64,000 nucleotides of DNA from the IMG/VR virus record IMGVR_UViG_3300002138_000037, positions 1 to 64,000 of that record; one strand, given 5' to 3'. The notes beneath the pieces were generated by a model. That model worked only from the letters and a program-made list of their open reading frames with translations, had not been told where the DNA came from and did no database searches. The translations under genes were made by a program, and so were the position numbers. The stretch comes from a virus. Every line of letters begins with the position of its first letter. Positions within the stretch are counted from its first letter, which is position 1. Of the stretch, positions 7,103 to 55,401 are shown piece after piece.

Positions 7103-7486
7103 GGGGATGTACTGGTTTCGATTCAGTTGAGATAAAGTACGAGGCATGTAGAGGATGATAGTTGGCCTCTTAAAAATTTCTATCAAAAAGATTAAACGCA
7201 AAAAACGTAATCGCCTATGACTTCACTCCAGAAATGGACGAAGTTGCTGTCGCAGCCTAATAAAAGGTTGTGCCGTTGAATGGATGACACACGATAGTCT
7301 ATTCAACGAATTTTTCGTGAGTGTTTGGTAATTCGACTTAGGTTACCAAACGAGAAAACTTGAGTATAAGGGTTGTGTGGTTTGGTATGTTCAGAACACA
7401 ATCTCGAAAATTTAAACATCCTAAACATGTAGGCTTTGACGGTATAACGATTGAAGACATGGATTCAACTTCCATCATCTCCACCA
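7103..7486 (+). ncRNA. ssrA: Transfer-messenger RNA (tmRNA), one-piece
   Basis: This RNA would rescue stalled ribosomes with SmpB by acting first as alanyl-tRNA and then as mRNA for a degradation tag. The acceptor stem GGGGATG (7103-7109) pairs with CATCTCC (7476-7482), followed by an A and an encoded CCA (7484-7486). A T arm of ATGGA/TCCAT with loop TTCAACT precedes it. The 5' part has GGTTTCGA and the GTTGGCCTC segment typical of bacterial tmRNAs. Two further long hairpins (GTTGAAT/ATTCAAC and GTTTGGTAA/TTACCAAAC) lie where pseudoknots are normally found. The length, 384 bases, is usual for a one-piece tmRNA. No smpB is in the window. Confidence 0.95.
7198..7263 (+). other. tmRNA tag-peptide reading frame
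   Basis: The resume codon GCA at 7198 opens a 20-codon frame, AKNVIAYDFTPEMDEVAVAA, ended by two consecutive TAA codons (7258-7263). The C-terminal AVAA matches the hydrophobic ends recognised by ClpXP-type proteases, and double stops are typical. The acidic middle EMDE is unusual but compatible. Confidence 0.9.
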
Positions 7487-12235: not shown

Positions 12236-13082
12236 ACCCGGCTCTAGGAATAAGGTTACTTCTAAAAAGACATTCAAATCGGCTAAAATTAAAAATGTAA
12301 ATAGGGTTCAGATAGTCGATGTTTGTGAAGAAAAACCGAAAGTAACGCCGGTGCCCACACCTACACCAGTAGTTGAGGTTCCAGTGAAGAAGGTTCGTAA
12401 ACCGTCCTTTGAAAAAATGTATTTTACCAAAGATACGGAAGACTCCATTGTATTGTATAATAAAGAAGAAGATATTGATAAACGCAATGAAATCTTCAAC
12501 ACCAAGATAAAGTTTGCATTTGAAAAGTTGGTGGAGAATATCTTTAACACATTCAAATTCAGTTACTTCGATGTAGGTCCATTGGAAGTACAAAAAGAAA
12601 CGCTTTCACATTTGGTGGCTAACATTCATAAATATGAAGAAGGTAAAGGTAAGGCATTTTCATATTTCAGTATCATTGCGAAGAACTACCTGATATTCAA
12701 TAACAATTCCAATTACAAACGATATAACCAACAAGTTGATATCAGTGAAGAGAATGAAGCGAACACCGTTAGATTACAATCTGAGGATACACATCACAAA
12801 GAAATGGAAACTAAACAATTCATCACAATGATGGTGGATTATTGGGATAGAAATCTCACCGAGATATTCACCAAGAAGAAAGATTTGAAAATTGCTGAGG
12901 CAGTCGTCGAGTTATTCCGTAATAGTGATCGAATAGACCACTTCAATAAGAAGGCATTATATCTTTATATCCGTGAAATTTCTTCGTGCAAAACGCAGCA
13001 GATTACAAAAGTGATAAATAAGATGAAAGAGTATCAGAATAAGATTACTAAGCTCTATGTCGAAAACGGTTCCCTTAGTTAA
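12186..13082 (+). CDS. Late-transcription sigma factor, gp55-like
   Basis: The product would be the phage sigma subunit that directs host RNA polymerase to the TAT(T/A)TAT boxes. The first 80 or so residues are a Lys/Pro/Val-rich tail. The core has KPSFEKMYFTKDTEDSIVLY and NEIFNTKIKFAFEKLVENIF, then HLVANIHKYEEGKGKAFSYF and SIIAKNYLI. The last two resemble sigma region 2 (KFSTYA..WI.n.i) as in T4 gp55 and its marine relatives. It has 298 residues against about 185 for T4 gp55, with much of the excess in the N-terminal tail. Start choice (12186 or 12195) is uncertain. The 3' end overlaps a GIY-YIG gene. Confidence 0.7.
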   Translation: MTTMIQKTKTKKTVKNKPGSRNKVTSKKTFKSAKIKNVNRVQIVDVCEEKPKVTPVPTPTPVVEVPVKKVRKPSFEKMYFTKDTEDSIVLYNKEEDIDKRNEIFNTKIKFAFEKLVENIFNTFKFSYFDVGPLEVQKETLSHLVANIHKYEEGKGKAFSYFSIIAKNYLIFNNNSNYKRYNQQVDISEENEANTVRLQSEDTHHKEMETKQFITMMVDYWDRNLTEIFTKKKDLKIAEAVVELFRNSDRIDHFNKKALYLYIREISSCKTQQITKVINKMKEYQNKITKLYVENGSLS

Positions 13083-13803
13083 TAAATATTACACCTATCA
13101 ATTGTCACATCCCCTTACAGACGAAGTATTTTACGTCGGTAAGGGGTGTGGTAATAGAATGTATAAACATGAAAAAGATGTGAGGTTGGGAAAAGTTCCT
13201 AACAAGACAAACTATAAGTTGTTTAATAAGATTTATGACCTAGTTAAAAAAGGTTTGTCTCCAAAGTATGAAAAGTTGATTGAGAACGTCGTGGAAATAG
13301 AGGCGTTATCATTAGAATCCGCATTTATAGATTTCTACGGTATGGAAAATTTGTGCAATTATTTGAAAAGTTGGTCGGGGGTTTCCGAAAGACGTCTGGA
13401 AACACGTATAAAACAAAGTTTGGCAAATAGGGGTGAAAAATCCTATATGTATGGTAAACCGAAGACAAAAAAACAAAAAGAGAAAAATCGTATCGCTCAT
13501 ACAGGAATTAATAATGCACGTTACATTAAAACAAAATATGCCTTTTACAACGAATCAATGGGAATAGTCGAAACTCTTACACCATATGATTTTAGAAAAA
13601 AATACAAAGTTGATAGTGGTGGGTTAAATTTGTTTTTAAATGGTAAAAGACTTTCTATAAAAGGTTGGACACTTGGTAAGGTTTCCTTAGAAGAAATAGA
13701 AAATGAACGACGTGAAAAAATTCGTCAAAAAACCAAAGGTGTTGCCAAATCGGAGTCACATCGGAAGAATTTGTGGAAAAATCGTAAAAGGCGGTCAATC
13801 TGA
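13057..13803 (+). CDS. GIY-YIG homing endonuclease
   Basis: The 248-residue protein begins with a GIY-YIG-type catalytic module. YYTYQL and FYVGKGCGNRMYKH are in the first 40 residues, with Arg in GNR and a later conserved Glu near residues 85-90. NUMOD3-like Lys/Arg-rich DNA-binding repeats follow (for example RGEKSYMYGKPKTKKQKEK), then a C-terminal helix-turn-helix-like region. Its start lies inside the 3' end of the sigma-factor gene, which is typical of a free-standing homing endonuclease lodged beside a conserved gene. Confidence 0.85.
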   Translation: MSKTVPLVNKYYTYQLSHPLTDEVFYVGKGCGNRMYKHEKDVRLGKVPNKTNYKLFNKIYDLVKKGLSPKYEKLIENVVEIEALSLESAFIDFYGMENLCNYLKSWSGVSERRLETRIKQSLANRGEKSYMYGKPKTKKQKEKNRIAHTGINNARYIKTKYAFYNESMGIVETLTPYDFRKKYKVDSGGLNLFLNGKRLSIKGWTLGKVSLEEIENERREKIRQKTKGVAKSESHRKNLWKNRKRRSI

Positions 13804-30244: not shown

Positions 30245-32686
30245 ATGCATAAAAACATATACATAGATAAGAAAGATTTTGGATATGCGGTTGCGATAAA
30301 TGAAATTTACAGCGCTATTGGAAATCCATCGTTTGAAAACTTCTCTTCTTCCTCAAATGCGATATTGGAAGAAGGTAGTGTGGATTTTTATAAATACGAT
30401 GCTTTGACGACGGATAGATTTGCGTATAATTTTACTGTAAGACGAACTTCTTTAAACGGAGATTTTACCCTTTTTACAGAAAATTACACAACCTCATCAG
30501 ATTCATTAATTTCAGGTAGTAACGAGGTCATTACCGAGTTGGGAACTAGTTCTAGTATTGATACCTCGGTGTATGATAGTTCATCTATATTGATTGCGGA
30601 TTTTGATAACATAAAAATACTTCAATCAGATTTCGGTCGGTCTTTAGATGTTTATGATAATTTATGCGTCGTAGGTTCAACCAAAATGGTTTACACCTTA
30701 CTACACATTGATAATGTCGTTCGAGACGATGATGGTGTAGTCGAATTACACGATATGTCAAATTCGACATCCTCATTACTCGTTTCTCTCTATGCTTCGG
30801 ACACGGGATTGACCGATACAGGGTCTAATTCATTTGGTTGGTCCGTTTCTATGAATCAGGAGTTTATAGCGGTAGGCAGTCCATTTACGAACGTCAGTGG
30901 GTCAGTATTCGTATTCAAGAGTGGGTCAAGTGGATATACTTATCACAGCGTATTGACATCTAGTGCTGAAAGTTTTTTTGGTGGATGCCTTAAATTAGAC
31001 AAAAATTACAATAAGTTGGTTGTGGGTAACGGAAGTATTATGAATTCCGATTCTAAAGTGTATTTGTATGAGTATATTTCGTCATCGGATGCGTGGTCAG
31101 TAGTAACGACGTTTGAATCTAATCGAGAAGTAGAAAATCTTAACTTTATACCAGTACCACAATATTCACCTATCATTACATTACCAGATGGTTTTGGTAA
31201 CGCGGTTTCACTATATTGTTCATCCTCAAGTTCCGTCACGGTTGCGATAGGTGCTCCATACGACAGAAGTTATCAAGAATTTAGTGGTTCTAACTGTTAC
31301 CGTAATGGATGTGTTTATGTATTCGATTTAATTGAGTGTGAACTAAACACATCAAGTAGTTCATACTGGCGTGAAACGAAATTATTTGGAGATAGTGACT
31401 CGTTTAAATTTAACAGATTTGGACACGCGGTTGATTTGTATGACAGCAATCTTCTAATTTCATCTCCGAAGTTTTTATCCGAGTTCAGTTCTTCCTATAT
31501 CCAGAATACCCTTTTCAAAGCAGAAGATTGTGATGATTTGGAGGAAAATGATTACTTGGGTATGTTCTACATATACCAAAATACCGATGATAGTTGGGAT
31601 AATGTCTATGCGAAGTTCAAACCAAAAAAGAAATACGGTTATCCTTACAATTTCTTTGCACACGATGTTTGTATTTTCGATGAAAATGTCATTGTTGGTT
31701 CACCAATTGCATTGACGGATTCTAATAGATTGATTGAAATCATACAGGATAGGGATGATTTGGCGTTGAATCTTAATGGAGATTTTAACATATTTAACTT
31801 GTCTGATTTTGAGGCACATCATCACGTTGGTAATGTCTTTTATAAAACTGGAAAAATGGTCATATCCACATCCGGTTCAATTTTCGACTATATGTTTGAG
31901 AGTGATGTGAATGATGAGCCAATTTACGACATATCTTATAATAGCAAGACGTCTTTATATGAAAAGGAAATCATATGTACGGTTGAACCGGGGGAATTTA
32001 ACTATTCTACAAATCCGACATCTTATACCTATCCAACAGCATCATTGGACTTAAATAAAAGTGGTAAATTTGATTTTGAAGACTGTGATAAAATTTTAAG
32101 AGCCATTTACAAAAAAATAACAGGTGTGGAAACTTGGTGGAACCTGTTTCCGTTCGATTATCCATCTGGATTTGAAGAAACTGTTGAAGGAAGTTTGTTT
32201 TACTATTATCTAAGTGGTTCATTTGAGGATAAATCACAAATTGCCCTCAATTCTACCACCTTGACAACGGTTGATTATAACTACATAATTAACAATTTAG
32301 ATGACGTATTGGATGTAAATGCTGATGGTATCACCGATGATGACGACATTAGAATCATATGGAAATATTTCATTGATAAATTGACTCCTAACAACTATCA
32401 AAACTTCATCACCTCAAAAAGTGTAGGTATTAGAAGTCAATATGTTGATGCGAAAGATTATTTGGATTCCTTGACTAATCGTGGAATAACACCAACTATT
32501 AAAGACGCATTTCAAGATAGGTGGGTATCTAGTTCGATAAACCCAACTGGTTCATATCTATCACCATACATTACAACCATAGGTCTATATAATGGATTAG
32601 ATTTGATAGCTGTGGCTAAGTTAGGAACACCTATAAAAAATGAAGGTAATTTTCCTTTGAATTTTATTATACGATTCGACATTTAA
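30245..32686 (+). CDS. Tail appendage protein with FG-GAP-like propeller and dockerin-like loops
   Basis: The 813-residue protein has about five repeats of the form FGxxVxxxxxxxxVGxP (FGRSLDVYDNLCVVGS, FGWSVSMNQEFIAVGSP, FGNAVSLY...VAIGAP, FGHAVDLYDSNLLISSP, FAHDVCIFDENVIVGSP). They resemble integrin-type FG-GAP propeller blades. Two calcium-loop motifs follow, DLNKSGKFDFED near residue 602 and DVNADGITDDDD near 690, each before a hydrophobic helix as in dockerin repeats. The C-terminus shares the TTIGLYN...AVAKL motif with the 26410 gene. It is probably a host-recognition or baseplate-peripheral protein. Confidence 0.7.
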   Translation: MHKNIYIDKKDFGYAVAINEIYSAIGNPSFENFSSSSNAILEEGSVDFYKYDALTTDRFAYNFTVRRTSLNGDFTLFTENYTTSSDSLISGSNEVITELGTSSSIDTSVYDSSSILIADFDNIKILQSDFGRSLDVYDNLCVVGSTKMVYTLLHIDNVVRDDDGVVELHDMSNSTSSLLVSLYASDTGLTDTGSNSFGWSVSMNQEFIAVGSPFTNVSGSVFVFKSGSSGYTYHSVLTSSAESFFGGCLKLDKNYNKLVVGNGSIMNSDSKVYLYEYISSSDAWSVVTTFESNREVENLNFIPVPQYSPIITLPDGFGNAVSLYCSSSSSVTVAIGAPYDRSYQEFSGSNCYRNGCVYVFDLIECELNTSSSSYWRETKLFGDSDSFKFNRFGHAVDLYDSNLLISSPKFLSEFSSSYIQNTLFKAEDCDDLEENDYLGMFYIYQNTDDSWDNVYAKFKPKKKYGYPYNFFAHDVCIFDENVIVGSPIALTDSNRLIEIIQDRDDLALNLNGDFNIFNLSDFEAHHHVGNVFYKTGKMVISTSGSIFDYMFESDVNDEPIYDISYNSKTSLYEKEIICTVEPGEFNYSTNPTSYTYPTASLDLNKSGKFDFEDCDKILRAIYKKITGVETWWNLFPFDYPSGFEETVEGSLFYYYLSGSFEDKSQIALNSTTLTTVDYNYIINNLDDVLDVNADGITDDDDIRIIWKYFIDKLTPNNYQNFITSKSVGIRSQYVDAKDYLDSLTNRGITPTIKDAFQDRWVSSSINPTGSYLSPYITTIGLYNGLDLIAVAKLGTPIKNEGNFPLNFIIRFDI

Positions 32687-40173: not shown

Positions 40174-40779
40174 ATGAAAAGAGCAAAAAACAAAAGCAAC
40201 ATCGAAATCGTAAAAGGATATTTGGCAGGCGAACGACCATTCACACAAGTTGGTTGGGTGCCGGATTTTAAAAAACGAAAAGAAGGTGAAACTTGGACCG
40301 ATGCACAAAATAAGTCTTGGATTTTCAAAGGTGGTCGTAAAAAACGTGTCAATAAGAGTGTAAAAATAAATCCAGATGACGTTAGATTGAGATGTAAAGA
40401 TTGTCAAATGGATGTTAAATGGGGTAATTATCTCGATGATCGAGTTTTTTACAAAAGCGGTAGATGTTACGATTGTTTAATCAAATTTGAAACCAAATTG
40501 AAACGTGATGGTGAATTTCGTCACTACGAACAAGTCAAAATTTTCAAAAATCAAAAAGGATTTTGTTTGGATTTGAAGGGTAAACTCGAAGATACCATAA
40601 AATATCTCGAAAACTCCAACGAGGACATCGTTTATATAAACGAAGATGGTAGTAAAGATGTTTGGAAAGATACAACTAAAGGTCAAGTGTTGGAAGATGC
40701 AAAACGTGATTATCAGGAATGTTTGGATGCATTGGTTCGGATTGATGAACAGTTGGAAAAGTTAAAGAAATATGAGTGA
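40174..40779 (+). CDS. Zinc-ribbon protein upstream of terminase, candidate small terminase
   Basis: The 201-residue protein has a basic N-terminal half with a WVPDFKKRKEGETWTDAQNK segment. A zinc ribbon follows (CKDC near residue 74 and CYDC near 96), then a C-terminal helix ending LEKLKKYE. It overlaps the terminase large-subunit start by eight bases, the position where small terminase genes usually lie. It does not obviously resemble T4 gp16, so the assignment rests only on position. A DNA-binding packaging accessory is an alternative. Confidence 0.5.
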   Translation: MKRAKNKSNIEIVKGYLAGERPFTQVGWVPDFKKRKEGETWTDAQNKSWIFKGGRKKRVNKSVKINPDDVRLRCKDCQMDVKWGNYLDDRVFYKSGRCYDCLIKFETKLKRDGEFRHYEQVKIFKNQKGFCLDLKGKLEDTIKYLENSNEDIVYINEDGSKDVWKDTTKGQVLEDAKRDYQECLDALVRIDEQLEKLKKYE

Positions 40780-41614
40780 CCCAAAAGTTAATTTACGAGA
40801 TGTAATTAAGAGTGAGTATTCTAGGTGTTTGGTGGATCCAATATACTTCATGAAGAAGTATGTTAAAATTCAACATCCGCTTCGGGGGACAATTCCATTT
40901 GAACTTTATCCATTTCAGGAAAAAGCGTTGAGAGAATTATGCGATAATAATTACAACATTATTCTCAAATCACGTCAGATGGGTATTACCACTCTGACGT
41001 CCGCATACTCATTATGGATGATGATTTTCCATCCTGATAAAAACATTCTCTGTATCAGTATCAAACAAGAAACGTCGAAAGAAATTGTTACACGGGTAAG
41101 ATTTGCAAACAATAATCTACCTTCTTGGTTGAAATTACAATGTGTTGAAGATAATCGGCTTTCCCTCCGATTAAAAAATGGTTCTCAAATCAAAGCAGTT
41201 TCATCATCCGGTGATGCAGGTCGTTCTTCCGCACTTTCATTGTTGATTATTGACGAAGCAGCCTTCATTGACAATATCGAAGAAATTTGGTTGTCCGCAC
41301 AATACACTCTATCTACTGGTGGTAAAGCAATTATTCTCAGTACTCCAAACGGTGTTGGTAATTTCTTTCATAAGACGTGGATGAAAGCAGCGGCAGATGA
41401 AAATGAATTCAATACCATTAACCTCCCTTGGTATTTACATCCAGAAAGAGATCAACACTGGCGAGATAAACAAACGGAATTGTCCGGTGTAAAAGGTTCG
41501 GCTCAAGAATGTGATTGTCTGTGGGGAGAATCCAAAGTTTGTGTTCGAGATATAAACACCAAAGTCGTAAGTTATATGACATTGGAAGAATTATTCATCT
41601 CTTTATCAAATTAA
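40772..41614 (+). CDS. terL: Terminase large subunit, N-terminal fragment ending in a split-intein N-half
   Basis: The 280-residue product carries the packaging ATPase. It has a Walker A-like SRQMGITT at residues 68-75, Walker B LLIIDEAA at 157-164, and a STPNGVGN motif near 190. At Cys 249 the sequence leaves the terminase family and reads CLWGESKVCVRDINTKVVSY, an intein block A. It then stops 32 residues into the intein. The second half of the protein is made by the gene at 42358. Trans-splicing would join SAQECD to CDFTTTG. Confidence 0.9.
   Translation: MSDPKVNLRDVIKSEYSRCLVDPIYFMKKYVKIQHPLRGTIPFELYPFQEKALRELCDNNYNIILKSRQMGITTLTSAYSLWMMIFHPDKNILCISIKQETSKEIVTRVRFANNNLPSWLKLQCVEDNRLSLRLKNGSQIKAVSSSGDAGRSSALSLLIIDEAAFIDNIEEIWLSAQYTLSTGGKAIILSTPNGVGNFFHKTWMKAAADENEFNTINLPWYLHPERDQHWRDKQTELSGVKGSAQECDCLWGESKVCVRDINTKVVSYMTLEELFISLSN
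41516..41611 (+). other. N-terminal half of the split intein
   Basis: Thirty-two codons from the catalytic Cys (41516-41518) to the stop. It has only block A; block B is on the other fragment. This very short N-half is the hallmark of atypically split inteins such as the AceL-TerL intein. Confidence 0.85.
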
Positions 41615-41617
41615 CAC

Positions 41618-41625
41618 TATTTATA
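41618..41625 (+). promoter_or_regulatory. Late promoter box of the inserted endonuclease gene
   Basis: TATTTATA, four bases after the stop of the terminase N-fragment and 17 bases before the ATG at 41643. Confidence 0.55.
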
Positions 41626-41642
41626 CGCAAGAATGTGACTGT

Positions 41643-42365
41643 ATGAATTATGTTAAATTAGGTTGGGATAATATAAAATTAGAATTGAACTCTATTAATG
41701 AATTTTATTCTTTATCCGAGACAGTTAGTAGATTAAAGCATGAAAATTTTTATAAATCTTTGTTTGGTAAAGCAAAAAACAGAACTCTAATAAAATCTGA
41801 TCCAATTTTGTATAAATCAATATATACATGGACTTCTATTTTAGAATTAACGTTTAAAAGTCAAAAATCATACAAAGGAAATTTTAATTTCAAATATCGT
41901 ATTTTGTTTTTAGTAGAAAAAAATGCAGATGTCCAGAAATTACTATGTAAATGTGGTAAACGATATACATGGAACACATATTGTAGATATTGTCCAGAAT
42001 ATCATGTTACTTGTAAATCACATTCTACGGAAACGAAGAAAAAACAAAGAATTGCAGCCATAAATTATATATCAAATTGTTCCGGTAAATGTGTTCCTAG
42101 ATATAATCGCAGTGCAATTAAATTGATTGAATCATATGGACGTGATAATGGATATAATTTTCGGCACGCAGAAAACGGTGGTGAAGTGTTTCTATCAAGT
42201 TTAGGATATTGGTTAGATGCTTATGATGAGGAAAAAAATGTTGTTTTGGAGATTGATGAACCGAGACATTTTAAAAATGGAAAACTAAAAAACAAAGATT
42301 TACAGAGACAAGTTGAGATAGAAAATTTTCTAGGATGTAAATTTGTACGGATTAAATATGATTAA
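41643..42365 (+). CDS. Vsr-like (EDxHD-type) homing endonuclease inside the broken terminase gene
   Basis: The 240-residue protein has an N-terminal DNA-binding part with several Cys pairs (CKCGKRYTWNTYCRYCPEYH). The C-terminal nuclease domain reads YWLDAYDEEKNVVLEIDEPRHF, later KDLQRQVEI, and ends GCKFVRIKYD. The order D, E-x-D, H, D/Q and a terminal beta strand fits the EDxHD/Vsr-like homing endonuclease family described for fractured genes with split inteins. It sits precisely between the two intein halves, has its own late box and overlaps the second fragment by eight bases. Confidence 0.8.
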   Translation: MNYVKLGWDNIKLELNSINEFYSLSETVSRLKHENFYKSLFGKAKNRTLIKSDPILYKSIYTWTSILELTFKSQKSYKGNFNFKYRILFLVEKNADVQKLLCKCGKRYTWNTYCRYCPEYHVTCKSHSTETKKKQRIAAINYISNCSGKCVPRYNRSAIKLIESYGRDNGYNFRHAENGGEVFLSSLGYWLDAYDEEKNVVLEIDEPRHFKNGKLKNKDLQRQVEIENFLGCKFVRIKYD

Positions 42366-42687
42366 AAATAATAAATATGAAATACAAACGCCGTCTGGAT
42401 TTCAACATTTTGAAGGAATTAGAAAGTTGGAGAAATCCGAACATGTAAAATTGACATTATCGGATGGAACAGTTCTCAAATGTTCACTCACACACCCATT
42501 TATATCTAATGGAAAAGAAATAAAATGTTCGGAATTATCAATTGGCACTATTTTAGATTCACGTCAACTTAATAAATATACTACAGTTAAATGTATTGAA
42601 AAAATTAATGATTCAATACTATTATATGATATAGTAGAAGTTACTGGTGGGAATATTTTTTACGTCGATGGGATTGTCTCACATAAT
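42358..42687 (+). other. C-terminal half of the split intein
   Basis: One hundred and ten codons ending in the HN dipeptide at 42682-42687, directly followed by the Cys codon 42688-42690 of the C-extein. Blocks B, F and G are intact. Confidence 0.85.
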
Positions 42688-43560
42688 TGTGATTTTACAA
42701 CAACTGGCCATACCTTATTGGAAACCGATACGTTGAAATGGATTAAAGAAAATAGAATTAAAGACCCAATAGAAAAACGATTTGCAAACCAAAGTCTATG
42801 GATTTGGGAATATCCAGATTATACGAAGAATTATTTGATTTGCGCCGACGTTGCTCGTGGTGATGGTGATGATTATTCCGCATTTCACGTTCTTGAAATG
42901 GAATCATTGACACAGGTTGCGGAATTTAAAGGTGCGGTAGATACCAAGACTTATGGAAATCTACTCGTCAGTATGGCAGTCGAGTATAATAAAGCAATAT
43001 TGGTCGTGGAAAATAACAACATCGGATGGGCAACTCTACAACAGGTTATTGATTCACAGTATCCAAATACATTTTATAGTAGTGCCGATTTACACTACGT
43101 CGATTTGGAAAAACAATTAACTAACAAACATCATCGAATTGAGAGAAACATGGTTCCGGGTTTCACCACAACCACCAAAACCAGACCACTTATAATTTCG
43201 AAATTGGAAGATTATTTCAGAGAACGTAGTGTTATTACAAACTCGATTCGATTATATGAAGAATTATCCGTCTTCATCTGGAATAATGGAAAAGCACAAG
43301 CAATGACTGGATATAATGACGATTTAGTTACTTCATTGGGTATGGGATTATGGGTAAGAGATACAGCACTTAGACTCAAATCTGAATCCGGGGAGTATGT
43401 TAAATCATTAATCGGAGGTATTAGTAAAACAGGTGATACCGAGGTTATTTATACATCCCAAACAAAGAAATCTCATGATTATTGGAGCATGCCTTCATCA
43501 GCCGGTAGTTCATTAACAAATCCAAATAGAGAAAGAGAAGATCTAAAGTGGTTGTTATAA
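42358..43560 (+). CDS. terL: Terminase large subunit, C-terminal fragment beginning with a split-intein C-half
   Basis: From the ATG at 42358 the first 110 residues are intein: YEIQTPSGFQHFEG, block B-like TLSDGTVLKCSLTHPF, block F LYDIVEVTGGNIFYVDGI and block G VSHN. Cys +1 follows, then the terminase nuclease domain with ADVARGDGDDYSAF, VVENNNIGW and NDDLVTSLGMGLW. This RNase H-like nuclease cuts concatemeric DNA at headful packaging. The TTG at 42343 is a less likely start. Without trans-splicing neither fragment would be a complete packaging motor. Confidence 0.9.
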   Translation: MIKNNKYEIQTPSGFQHFEGIRKLEKSEHVKLTLSDGTVLKCSLTHPFISNGKEIKCSELSIGTILDSRQLNKYTTVKCIEKINDSILLYDIVEVTGGNIFYVDGIVSHNCDFTTTGHTLLETDTLKWIKENRIKDPIEKRFANQSLWIWEYPDYTKNYLICADVARGDGDDYSAFHVLEMESLTQVAEFKGAVDTKTYGNLLVSMAVEYNKAILVVENNNIGWATLQQVIDSQYPNTFYSSADLHYVDLEKQLTNKHHRIERNMVPGFTTTTKTRPLIISKLEDYFRERSVITNSIRLYEELSVFIWNNGKAQAMTGYNDDLVTSLGMGLWVRDTALRLKSESGEYVKSLIGGISKTGDTEVIYTSQTKKSHDYWSMPSSAGSSLTNPNREREDLKWLL

Positions 43561-53764: not shown

Positions 53765-53937
53765 ACCATTTTTTGTTGATTCTCCAAATCATTCAAATCT
53801 TGTAAAAAATTATGACATGGTAAAAAGTAAAAGCCATTTTCTTCTATCTCTTCCGGTGTCCATAACGTAGTTGGTTTAAAATAACCACCTGCGTTATAAT
53901 GATGACTTAATTTCGAAGCCATATGAGATGTTTTCAT
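53710..53937 (-). CDS. Small hypothetical protein, possibly truncated by the HNH gene
   Basis: The 75-residue frame begins MKTSHMASKLSHHYNAGGYF and contains PTTLWTPEEIEENGFYFLPC. It overlaps the guaC stop and then runs into the HNH gene in another frame. Its last 20 or so residues lie in sequence shared with the HNH start, so the native C-terminus may have been replaced at insertion. It belongs to the minus-strand operon with guaC and the macro-domain gene. No family recognised. Confidence 0.5.
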   Translation of the reverse strand: MKTSHMASKLSHHYNAGGYFKPTTLWTPEEIEENGFYFLPCHNFLQDLNDLENQQKMVCSETIEITLLRKIFHLI

Positions 53938-54926
53938 CTTCTATCTCCCGGTGGTAGACTGTTTTCCTTGATTTCAAATACACCATTTCCAATGAAATCA
54001 CTCAATGTCAAATGACCGGAATAGCTAACAATACTTGATAATCCACCCCAAAGTCCTGTTTCTCCGAACATCAAATCCTTTAATGGAATCTTGGTGCCAT
54101 CGACAGTGTAAACCTTACCTTCACTATGTCTAATTCGACCAGTGTTGTATCTTTCCTGTTGTTTGTGACTCGCACCACCCCAAAAAGTTCCATCTTTACT
54201 GACGTTAGTTTGTGCCTCTAATGCCTTTCCGAAAAATCCACCCAACATAACAAAATCTGCTCCTGCACCGAATGCTTTTGCCGCATAATTACCATTTTTA
54301 ATACCACCATCAGCGACAATGTAGAAGTTTTCATACAAATCAGCTTCTTCTGCACACTCCATAATTTCAGTGATATTTCCTCTATTTACACCAGTTGCAT
54401 CACTCGTTGAACATGCACTTCCACCCGCGATACCGACACGAAAAAGGATGTTAAAACCACAATTATCGAACTCTTTATACATTCGGATTCCATCTGCAGA
54501 ATGAATATTTCCCAACATCAAGTTGGAAACATTGGCTCTGGTACGAAGTTCATATATGACGTTTTTGATTTTGTGTAAATACCCATTTGCACAATCAATT
54601 AACCAATTAGTTGTTGTATCCTTGAACTTTTCAACTCTATCCCAATCATCCAATCCAATACTGACATAGACATTGGAACCATTGGTTTTACGGAATGTTT
54701 CAAGTTGAATTTCGGGAGTGCAGAATCTATGAATACACACCGTCAGACCCAAATCCGACGCAGCTTTTGCGAAATCTGGACCAACTACCGCATCCATTGG
54801 AGATACGATAATTCTATGTAGTTCTTTTGGAACCAAATCACGACTTGTGAAATTTGGATTAGCCGGTTGTGCAATCAAATTTATGTCGTTATAATAAATT
54901 GATTTTGTTTTGAGTATTTTGGCCAT
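53934..54926 (-). CDS. guaC: GMP reductase / IMP dehydrogenase family protein
   Basis: The 330-residue TIM-barrel enzyme would convert GMP to IMP with NADPH, or act as an IMPDH-like enzyme. Visible signatures are VGIAGGSACSTSDATGVNRG with the catalytic Cys at 172, VADGGIKNGNYAAKAFGAGA at about 204-223, and FVMLGGFF after it. A C-terminal SEGKVYTVDGTK segment is where the family has its purine-site Glu-Gly. It lacks the CBS domains of typical IMPDH, which favours GMP reductase. The ATG at 54926 lies one base after the macro-domain gene stop, so the two are one minus-strand operon. Shifting purine pools during replication is the expected role. Confidence 0.85.
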   Translation of the reverse strand: MAKILKTKSIYYNDINLIAQPANPNFTSRDLVPKELHRIIVSPMDAVVGPDFAKAASDLGLTVCIHRFCTPEIQLETFRKTNGSNVYVSIGLDDWDRVEKFKDTTTNWLIDCANGYLHKIKNVIYELRTRANVSNLMLGNIHSADGIRMYKEFDNCGFNILFRVGIAGGSACSTSDATGVNRGNITEIMECAEEADLYENFYIVADGGIKNGNYAAKAFGAGADFVMLGGFFGKALEAQTNVSKDGTFWGGASHKQQERYNTGRIRHSEGKVYTVDGTKIPLKDLMFGETGLWGGLSSIVSYSGHLTLSDFIGNGVFEIKENSLPPGDRR

Positions 54927-54927
54927 A

Positions 54928-55401
54928 TTATTTAGTGTATTCACAAATGTAAACCTCAAACGGCGCATCATCGAAGATGGAATGAATCATTGCGTTGACT
55001 ACATTCCAATCACCACCAGCTAATGCACAACCCATGTTCTTAGGTAGCCCGATAGATTTTATTGGTTTACCCACACAGTCTTTTCTCATTCCCTCCATAG
55101 CCGTGTAAATCGACTCATAGTTCAATTTTCGACTATCCTTACCGTAGTAGTATTGACCATACAAATTGTAGACAAACTTGATTTTGGTTTCAATGTTTGG
55201 TTTGGTGATTGTGGCCACGGAGAACTTACCAAACTTGGTTTTGTCACCAGATTGGGTCTTTAAATCCTCCTGATAAGCCTCTGGCAACTGCAGTTTTATT
55301 TGTTTCGCAATGCCACTTCCCATGGTGCAGAAACAATTGGTACAATGTCCAATTGCATCTACCTCATACGTTAATAAGTCAATCTTAACTTCTGTTATCA
55401 T
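54928..55401 (-). CDS. Macro-domain (ADP-ribose-binding) protein
   Basis: The 157-residue protein fits one macro domain. The first strands lead into VDAIGHCTNCFCTMGSGIAK, which contains the ADP-ribose-binding GSGIA loop. QLPEAYQED follows, with a later SIGLPKNMGCALAGGDW segment of the phosphate-binding loop. Such proteins bind or hydrolyse ADP-ribose derivatives, for example Appr-1-p or ADP-ribosylated targets. In phage it could recycle NAD-derived metabolites or remove ADP-ribose added by host defence; both are inference. It is the first gene of the operon and has its own promoter. Confidence 0.85.
   Translation of the reverse strand: MITEVKIDLLTYEVDAIGHCTNCFCTMGSGIAKQIKLQLPEAYQEDLKTQSGDKTKFGKFSVATITKPNIETKIKFVYNLYGQYYYGKDSRKLNYESIYTAMEGMRKDCVGKPIKSIGLPKNMGCALAGGDWNVVNAMIHSIFDDAPFEVYICEYTK

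What the first reader, a model, noticed from the sequence alone, without database searches (positions are those of the whole stretch)
40772..43560. Terminase gene fractured by an atypically split intein with a homing endonuclease in the gap
The terminase N-fragment stops 32 residues into an intein (Cys 249, block A only). The C-fragment starts with 110 intein residues carrying blocks B, F and G and the HN-Cys junction. Between them lies an EDxHD/Vsr-like endonuclease gene with its own late box. A split this close to the intein N-terminus is rare and recalls the AceL-TerL intein known from metagenomic data; the gene-endonuclease-gene layout matches the fractured genes described from environmental sequence. 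Here the whole arrangement is in a long phage contig. The packaging motor would be assembled only by protein trans-splicing.
Basis: partly seen in the sequence, partly recalled or inferred. Interest (0 to 1): 0.92.

Follow-up and report, generated by a model that had tools for sequence, protein, structure and literature searches.

The report
Phage packaging-motor gene broken by intein
A virus of bacteria carries its DNA-packaging motor gene in two pieces that probably join only after translation, with a selfish DNA-cutting gene between them that appears to keep a copy of its own target beside its start; the layout is a known kind, but the target copy looks new.

Summary
A T4-type terL is cut at codon 249. 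The N-ORF ends 32 residues into an intein, a 240-aa endonuclease ORF follows, and its stop overlaps the start of the C-ORF (110 intein residues plus C-extein). Two other assemblies keep the stops; 72 of the 80 best relatives have terL uninterrupted here. The kind is neither rare nor metagenome-only: I found 93 terL loci with this insertion, 92 of them split, including nine named phage records (Vibrio, Aeromonas, Providencia, Serratia). The break is the constant and the endonuclease the variable: EDxHD, GIY-YIG or HNH, free or fused, decayed or absent. Intein catalytic residues are near-invariant. One pair of diverged phages shares the 1.2-kb insert at 99.4% identity between flanks differing by 11-17%, so it moves as a unit. 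New here: many EDxHD genes, this one included, carry a copy of the left half of the intein insertion site just after a promoter-like box at the endonuclease start, as T4 I-TevI's operator mimics its homing site. Best reading: mobile fractured terL, trans-spliced, with a predicted self-repressing endonuclease. No splicing, cleavage or repression was tested.

The parts
40772..41515 (+). TerL N-extein (248 codons)
   Evidence: runs straight into the C-extein in 72 of 80 relatives
41504..41518 (+). intein insertion site, left half plus Cys1 codon (CAAGAATGTGATTGT)
41516..41614 (+). intein N fragment (32 aa, Cys1) and stop codon
41617..41624 (+). promoter-like box CTATTTAT
41628..41642 (+). copy of the insertion-site half (CAAGAATGTGACTGT), predicted endonuclease operator
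41611..41656 (+). possible RNA hairpin holding the box in one arm and the endonuclease start codon in the other (weak in the window)
   Evidence: z -1.57; z -1.38
41643..42365 (+). free-standing homing endonuclease, EDxHD/Vsr-like C-terminal domain, four conserved Cys in the middle
42358..42365 (+). ATG of the C fragment overlapping the endonuclease stop
   Evidence: 47 of 53 EDxHD loci overlap
42358..42687 (+). intein C fragment (110 aa, ends HN)
42688..43560 (+). TerL C-extein (+1 Cys, 290 aa) and stop

Best explanation
This is a mobile fractured-gene cassette in a T4-type phage. Shown by sequence: terL is interrupted at one codon by an intein N fragment, an endonuclease gene and an intein C fragment; relatives have the uninterrupted gene; in relatives the unit from intein N to intein C has moved as one piece between diverged phages. 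Inferred: the two TerL halves are made separately, the intein halves associate and trans-splice to give full-length TerL. In mixed infection the endonuclease cuts intein-less terL at the insertion site, and repair copies the cassette in. Further inferred, weaker: the endonuclease also binds the half-site copy beside its own promoter-like box and so limits its own expression, as I-TevI does; lacking the right half of the homing site, the copy would be bound but cut poorly. The C fragment's start codon overlaps the endonuclease stop, so translation of the second TerL half is probably coupled to that of the endonuclease.
For: Uninterrupted terL in 72 of 80 relatives: 63 with N- and C-extein matches abutting exactly, 9 overlapping by two codons (L002 junction). 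93 loci: each has a Cys at position 1 (found by a pattern that asks for Cys; no locus failed it), block-B His in 92 of 93, HN and +1 Cys in 93 of 93 (90 by profile, and the other 3 read). dN/dS in the intein fragments 0.06-0.44 where computable over 19 pairs, pairs with endonuclease-less members included. Cassette transfer: L105 against L104, 7 of 1208 element columns differ, against 65 of 600 upstream and 103 of 600 downstream; L005 against L104, 39 of 1208 against 91 and 96 of 600. Same break in nine named phage records: Vibrio VP-1, K469, 1.244.A, Va1 and EniLVp02, Providencia PSTRCR_127, Aeromonas PX29 and AsFcp_4, Serratia 92A1. Half-site copy: in 22 of 52 EDxHD loci at most 1%, and in 33 at most 5%, of control 18-mers match as well, 17 and 28 of 53, against 0 and 3 of 31 loci with other endonucleases; peak at the insertion site, mean z 2.63 against at most 0.70 outside -30..+10; left half only.
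Against: No splicing, cleavage, binding or transcript was measured. Loci are related and came from capped, similarity-ranked lists, so counts are neither independent nor a census. 19 of 52 EDxHD loci fail the 5% level for the copy. The 6 HNH loci also show a weak rise near the junction (mean z 1.91 at offset -6, with 1.66 elsewhere). The intein fragments are less constrained than the exteins in most pairs. The hairpin at the endonuclease start is ordinary in the window (z -1.57; -1.38). The fold match of the endonuclease to I-Bth0305I is modest (Z 6.7, 74 residues, rmsd 4.0) and a profile search of PDB sequences did not find it. Several other close pairs show no sign of transfer.
Confidence: 0.85

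Rival explanations
1. The halves work as two subunits without splicing, as reported for a ribonucleotide reductase gene split by a homing endonuclease gene (phage Aeh1, mobE), and the intein remnants are passive.
For: A gene in pieces that works as two peptides is mentioned in PMC10448857 (passage). No spliced protein has been seen here.
Against: Splice-junction and block-B residues are near-invariant over 93 loci and both intein parts show dN/dS well under 1, pairs with endonuclease-less members included; passive remnants should decay.
Confidence: 0.07
2. The half-site copy is not an operator but a relic of the event that placed the endonuclease gene, or a low-rate cutting site that makes donor ends.
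For: It lies in different frames and positions in different clades. Self-cutting to make donor ends has been suggested for other homing endonucleases (PMC10448857, passage). 19 of 52 loci lack it at the 5% level.
Against: A relic should decay between loci with many synonymous changes (pS about 0.4-0.9 in most pairs), yet 33 of 52 keep it at the 5% level. It goes with the EDxHD type. Of 7 endonuclease-less loci tested (L234 counted, L090 too short to test) only the recently deleted L197 keeps it at the 5% level.
Confidence: 0.35
3. Broken gene: sequencing error, assembly fault or pseudogene.
For: None found in the window.
Against: Three assemblies agree on the stops; the same layout recurs in dozens of loci and in named phage genomes; dN/dS is low.
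Confidence: 0.01
4. An RNA intron carrying an endonuclease sits inside a continuous intein gene.
For: ICP1 terL has an RNA intron with an endonuclease gene beside it (PMC10448857, passage).
Against: No group I or II intron in the window by Rfam; only 28 nt lie between the intein N stop and the endonuclease start, and the endonuclease stop overlaps the C-fragment start, leaving no room for a ribozyme.
Confidence: 0.01

Closest known systems
Aeromonas phage PX29 gene 17A/17B (GU396103)
   Same: Same TerL insertion site, N fragment with short intein N, C fragment with intein C, annotated as such in GenBank
   Different: GIY-YIG endonuclease fused to the intein C fragment; here a free-standing EDxHD-type gene
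AceL, GOS and Cat TerL atypically split inteins
   Same: Short intein N (25 aa AceL, 30 aa TerL CAT); AceL and GOS split after the first helix, position S2 (PMC13014065, passages); intein C matches the solved CatC by sequence (that CatC is the TerL CAT intein is my inference)
   Different: Their native endonuclease context was not available to me; window intein N is 32 aa
Fractured genes with split inteins and EDxHD endonucleases (Dassa et al. 2009)
   Same: Gene half, endonuclease, gene half (recalled; paper not held)
   Different: Whether those endonuclease genes carry a homing-site copy at their start could not be checked
T4 I-TevI operator and RBS hairpin (PMC2988022)
   Same: Homing-site-like sequence overlapping a late promoter of the endonuclease (15 of 20 nt; passage); hairpin over the start in some relatives
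   Different: I-TevI is a GIY-YIG enzyme in a group I intron with reported binding and repression; here an EDxHD-type gene in a split intein, prediction only
Pseudomonas phage MIJ3 split PolB intein with HNH gene between the halves (PMC6892783)
   Same: Gene-endonuclease-gene with a putative split intein in a cultured phage (passages)
   Different: Other host gene, longer intein N (blocks A to N4 are in the N part), HNH enzyme

Membership tests
Fractured gene (split intein plus endonuclease in the gap) | Two gene halves each carrying a complementary intein part, with a separate endonuclease ORF between | tested here: met
Fractured gene (split intein plus endonuclease in the gap) | Protein trans-splicing of the halves | not testable with these tools
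   residue conservation and selection only
Atypically split TerL intein (AceL, GOS, Cat type) | Intein N of about 25-30 aa, intein C of about 100 aa | tested here: met
   32 and 110 aa here; 30-38 aa to the stop in 85 of 92 split loci; lengths of the known ones from PMC13014065. That the split follows the first helix was not checked by structure
Atypically split TerL intein (AceL, GOS, Cat type) | Sequence kinship of intein C to the solved CatC intein | tested here: met
   6dsl_B E 4.3e-14 over residues 6-112
Atypically split TerL intein (AceL, GOS, Cat type) | Same insertion codon as AceL-TerL | not tested
   AceL-TerL sequence and flanks were not fetched
EDxHD / I-Bth0305I homing endonucleases | Conserved acidic and His active-site residues in the C-terminal domain | tested here: met
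   E203, E206, H209, D219 in 48 of 50 distinct rows, the other two gapped there; assignment of these to the EDxHD motif is recalled, so this is conservation, not proof of the motif
EDxHD / I-Bth0305I homing endonucleases | Vsr-like fold | tested here: inconclusive
   AlphaFold2 pLDDT 89.9, pTM 0.52; 3r3p Z 6.7, Vsr entries Z 6.7 and 5.8, best rows mitoribosomal proteins Z 10.3; no sequence hit to 3r3p
I-TevI-type endonuclease autoregulation | Homing-site-like sequence at the endonuclease promoter | tested here: met
   window 41628-41642 beside box 41617-41624. The box is promoter-like only
I-TevI-type endonuclease autoregulation | Endonuclease binds the site and represses transcription | not testable with these tools
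   needs binding and reporter assays
Group I or II intron | Ribozyme structure around the endonuclease | tested here: not met
   no Rfam match there; no room

The most novel reading that the evidence does not exclude
The EDxHD endonuclease of fractured terL genes has independently evolved the I-TevI strategy: it carries a half-site mimic of its homing site over its own promoter and represses itself. More broadly, the broken intein is a stable platform on which unrelated endonucleases are swapped, lost and regained, and from which one lineage (L191) has re-fused the two intein halves into one gene.
Probability: 0.45. Interest if true: 0.75.

Novelty: new variant of a known kind. Interest (0 to 1): 0.6.

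Why it matters
It ties a metagenome-known oddity to named phages where it can be tested, shows that an essential motor gene can stay broken after the endonuclease that accompanied the break is gone, gives natural evidence that a split intein and its endonuclease travel as one cassette, and yields dozens of natural short-N split inteins of possible use for protein labelling. If the operator reading is right, self-repression through a homing-site mimic has arisen in a second endonuclease family and a second kind of host element.

Tried and rejected
RNA intron: Rfam gave only a tmRNA. Two-subunit TerL without splicing and pseudogene: see rivals. A protein-level reason for the half-site copy (a tail of intein N): rejected because the copy lies in different frames and often after the stop. 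A phage-wide promoter element: rejected, since the 15-mer occurs without mismatch only at the insertion site and at the copy in the window (at up to 3 mismatches there are 6 hits, 6.44 expected). RNA hairpin as the general device: strong in some loci (L118 z -5.18, L140 z -3.77); 45 EDxHD loci have mean z -1.18, 10 of them under -2, against -0.13 and 5.8% for 225 control windows; weak in the window. Cellular genomes: one scan of genome contigs with the intein C alignment gave 51 pattern hits and no confirmed relative. PDB sequence search with intein N alone: no hit; with the endonuclease profile: best E 0.12, no endonuclease. Foldseek on the endonuclease model gave no match at E 0.001 or better.

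The 93 loci are 89 distinct sequences from one automatic pass plus four phage records added by hand; exact duplicates were merged, near-duplicates such as WIN and L096 were not (84 different intein rows). Loci cut by contig ends, and inteins at other terL sites (for example L091, L232, L239, L241, L243, L244), were not counted. Because the queries were split inteins, continuous ones may be under-sampled. In one search the label GIY (18 rows) rests on reading by eye, on the GenBank note of PX29, and on Pfam for 4 rows (L213, L216, L221, L086), of which L216 had only a weak NUMOD3 row; HNH was Pfam-checked for 3 of 6; the second Vsr-like type (6 rows) was read by eye, with Pfam DUF559 for L246, no informative row for L085, and only short remnants in L224, L225, L227 and L228. 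The information-content figures are biased, because windows were anchored on best matches, and are not used. The binomial test treats boxes as independent.

Literature: PMC2988022, PMC6892783, PMC8228797, PMC10189870, PMC13014065 and PMC10448857 were seen as passages only; other papers as search listings. Dassa et al. 2009 is not held and is cited from recall and from reference lists. That I saw no print report of a homing-site copy in EDxHD or fractured-gene endonucleases rests on the listings of searches, in a library that lacks most subscription journals; I did not open most listed papers.
Full report
What is there. The window lies in a 74,280-base virus record of a T4-type phage: Gp23 capsid and T4 portal profiles are found nearby. 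The terL gene is in two ORFs. The first (40772-41614) ends 32 residues after the start of an intein at Cys249; the second (ATG 42358 to 43560) opens with 110 intein residues ending in HN and goes on with the C-extein, CDFTTTG. Between them is a 240-residue ORF (41643-42365) whose stop overlaps the ATG of the second half by 8 nt. Two other assemblies differ from the window at 2 of 8720 bases each and keep the stops. No RNA intron is found.

The empty site. Of the 80 best relatives fetched with the C-ORF (596 were confirmed), 72 have terL uninterrupted here: in 63 the N- and C-extein matches abut exactly, in 9 they overlap by two codons. Four carry the insertion (L003, L004, L005, L041) and 4 lack the N part (L007, L032, L048, L070). 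L002, 85% and 75% identical in the two exteins, reads GSAQECD-CDFTTTG across the junction.

How common it is. Further scans with the endonuclease and intein C alignments, together with phage records, gave 93 terL loci with an intein at this site; 92 are split and one, L191, is continuous. Intein N runs 30-38 residues to its stop in 85 of the 92, 45 in L003, and 123 to 360 in six rows, five of which (L082, L083, L084, L147, L165) run on into an endonuclease. The nine phage records are Vibrio phages VP-1, K469, 1.244.A, Va1 and EniLVp02, Providencia PSTRCR_127, Aeromonas PX29 and AsFcp_4, and Serratia 92A1. PX29 carries the notes 'contains putative N-intein' and 'contains putative GIY-YIG endonuclease and C-intein'.

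The break stays, the endonuclease changes. By gap content the 93 rows are: EDxHD type of the window 53, GIY-YIG 18, HNH 6, a second Vsr-like type 6, none 7, unclear 2 (L234, L245), continuous 1 (basis of labels under Tried and rejected). The endonuclease is free (window, Providencia, Serratia), fused behind intein N (VP-1, K469, 1.244.A) or fused ahead of intein C (PX29, Va1). The 7 endonuclease-less rows need 7 changes on the intein tree, at least 6 forced by starred branches (140 columns, quick method, many open forks). Loss is direct in L197: 684 nt are missing between two TAAAAATT repeats while intein N, the half-site copy and intein C remain. L181 seems to keep a trace of the endonuclease 3' end (read by eye). 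L191 lies next to L118 among split inteins with weak support (81), so re-fusion is likely but not proven.

Does it work? Cys1 is present in 93 of 93 (by a pattern that asks for it and that no locus failed), block-B His in 92, HN and +1 Cys in 93 (90 by profile, the other three read). dN/dS of intein N and C was 0.06-0.44 in the pairs where it could be computed, of 19 pairs; the exteins are mostly more constrained. Phages with the broken gene stand in the databases as named phages, seven of the nine with a bacterial host in the record. Trans-splicing is therefore by far the likeliest reading, but it was not observed.

Does it move? L105 and L104 share the element with 7 of 1208 columns differing, against 65 of 600 just upstream and 103 of 600 just downstream; the first outside differences lie 13 nt before Cys1 and 17 nt into the C-extein. 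L005 against L104 shows 39 of 1208 against 91 and 96 of 600. Intein N, endonuclease and intein C thus moved as one cassette. L197 shows the same contrast without the endonuclease. Other pairs, such as L104 and L109 or L134 and L136, show no such contrast. The window's own element has no close non-identical relative among the loci fetched, so its own last move is not dated. The endonucleases of the L005 group carry Tyr in place of Asp205 (5 of 50 rows have Tyr: L005, L101, L105, L108 and the distant L229); since this group shows recent transfer, that residue may not be essential.

The half-site copy. In the window CAAGAATGTGATTGT at the insertion site (41504) recurs as CAAGAATGTGACTGT at 41628, between the box CTATTTAT and the endonuclease ATG. 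Over 52 EDxHD loci, the 18-mer at the insertion site finds a match near the endonuclease start that at most 1% of control 18-mers from the same stretch equal in 22 loci, and at most 5% in 33; 19 fail. With a wider gap definition it is 17 and 28 of 53, against 0 and 3 of 31 loci with other endonucleases, and 0 and 1 of 7 without. The similarity peaks at offset -12 and falls off both ways; no such peak appears for 18 GIY loci, and 6 HNH loci show a weak rise at -6 that is little above their background. It covers the left half of the intein-less site and not the right half. The box recurs in this phage: 8 of 10 plus-strand copies lie 13-26 nt before an ORF start (a looser test, gives 6 of 10 against 0.32). 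In one clade (L041 and relatives) the copy overlaps the box and an inverted partner follows, giving in several of them a stable predicted RNA hairpin over the endonuclease start; in the window the hairpin is weak. T4 I-TevI has such a layout, a homing-site-like operator (15 of 20 nt) over its late promoter and a start-hiding hairpin (PMC2988022, passages). I therefore predict self-repression by this endonuclease, at about even odds.

Coupling. In 47 of 53 EDxHD loci the ATG of the C fragment overlaps the endonuclease stop, so loss of endonuclease translation could lower the supply of the second TerL half. That this favours retention of the endonuclease is inference.

Endonuclease. An alignment of the window protein with 29 relatives gave an AlphaFold2 model of pLDDT 89.9 and pTM 0.52. 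Residues from about 135 to 240 match Vsr-like nucleases, I-Bth0305I among them at Z 6.7, but two mitoribosomal proteins score higher (Z 10.3), so family membership by fold is supported but inconclusive. It is the only such gene in the 74-kb record.

Verdict. Observation confirmed; the reading as trans-spliced fractured terL well supported; rarity not supported. The new points are the breadth of the same-site fracture with exchangeable endonucleases, the direct traces of cassette movement and endonuclease loss, and the homing-site copy.

Noticed in passing
window 7103-7486 (+): A tmRNA gene (RF00023, 136.5 bits, full model) in a phage genome; ARAGORN did not call it.
   Followed up: no
window 53934-54971 (-) and 54928-55401 (-): IMP dehydrogenase/GMP reductase-like gene and a macro-domain gene on the minus strand amid mostly plus-strand genes.
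   Followed up: no
window 13057-13803 (+): LEM-3-like GIY-YIG domain protein, Pfam E 1.5e-12.
   Followed up: no
window 30245-32686 (+): 813-aa protein with an FG-GAP repeat, possibly a host-binding protein.
   Followed up: no
L003 7201-11217, L004 7210-11010, L005 7197-10145: The portal gene next to the fractured terL carries one or two further intein-like insertions in the same reading frame (read by eye).
   Followed up: no
L082 834-3050; L091, L191, L232, L239, L241: terL also hosts continuous intein-like insertions at other sites (near Walker A in VP-1, near Walker B in others; site names by eye), so one gene can carry two or more.
   Followed up: partly
L191 2593-3001: The only continuous intein found at the split site: intein N and C fused directly without an endonuclease, a possible natural re-fusion.
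   Followed up: partly
L146 544-1260: The terL N part is interrupted by single in-frame stops at two places; recoded stop codon or broken gene.
   Followed up: no
L092 (LR756508.1), L094 (Prevotella phage Lak-C1): Huge-phage genomes hold ORFs like the C-terminal half of this endonuclease with no terL match in the fetched stretch.
   Followed up: no
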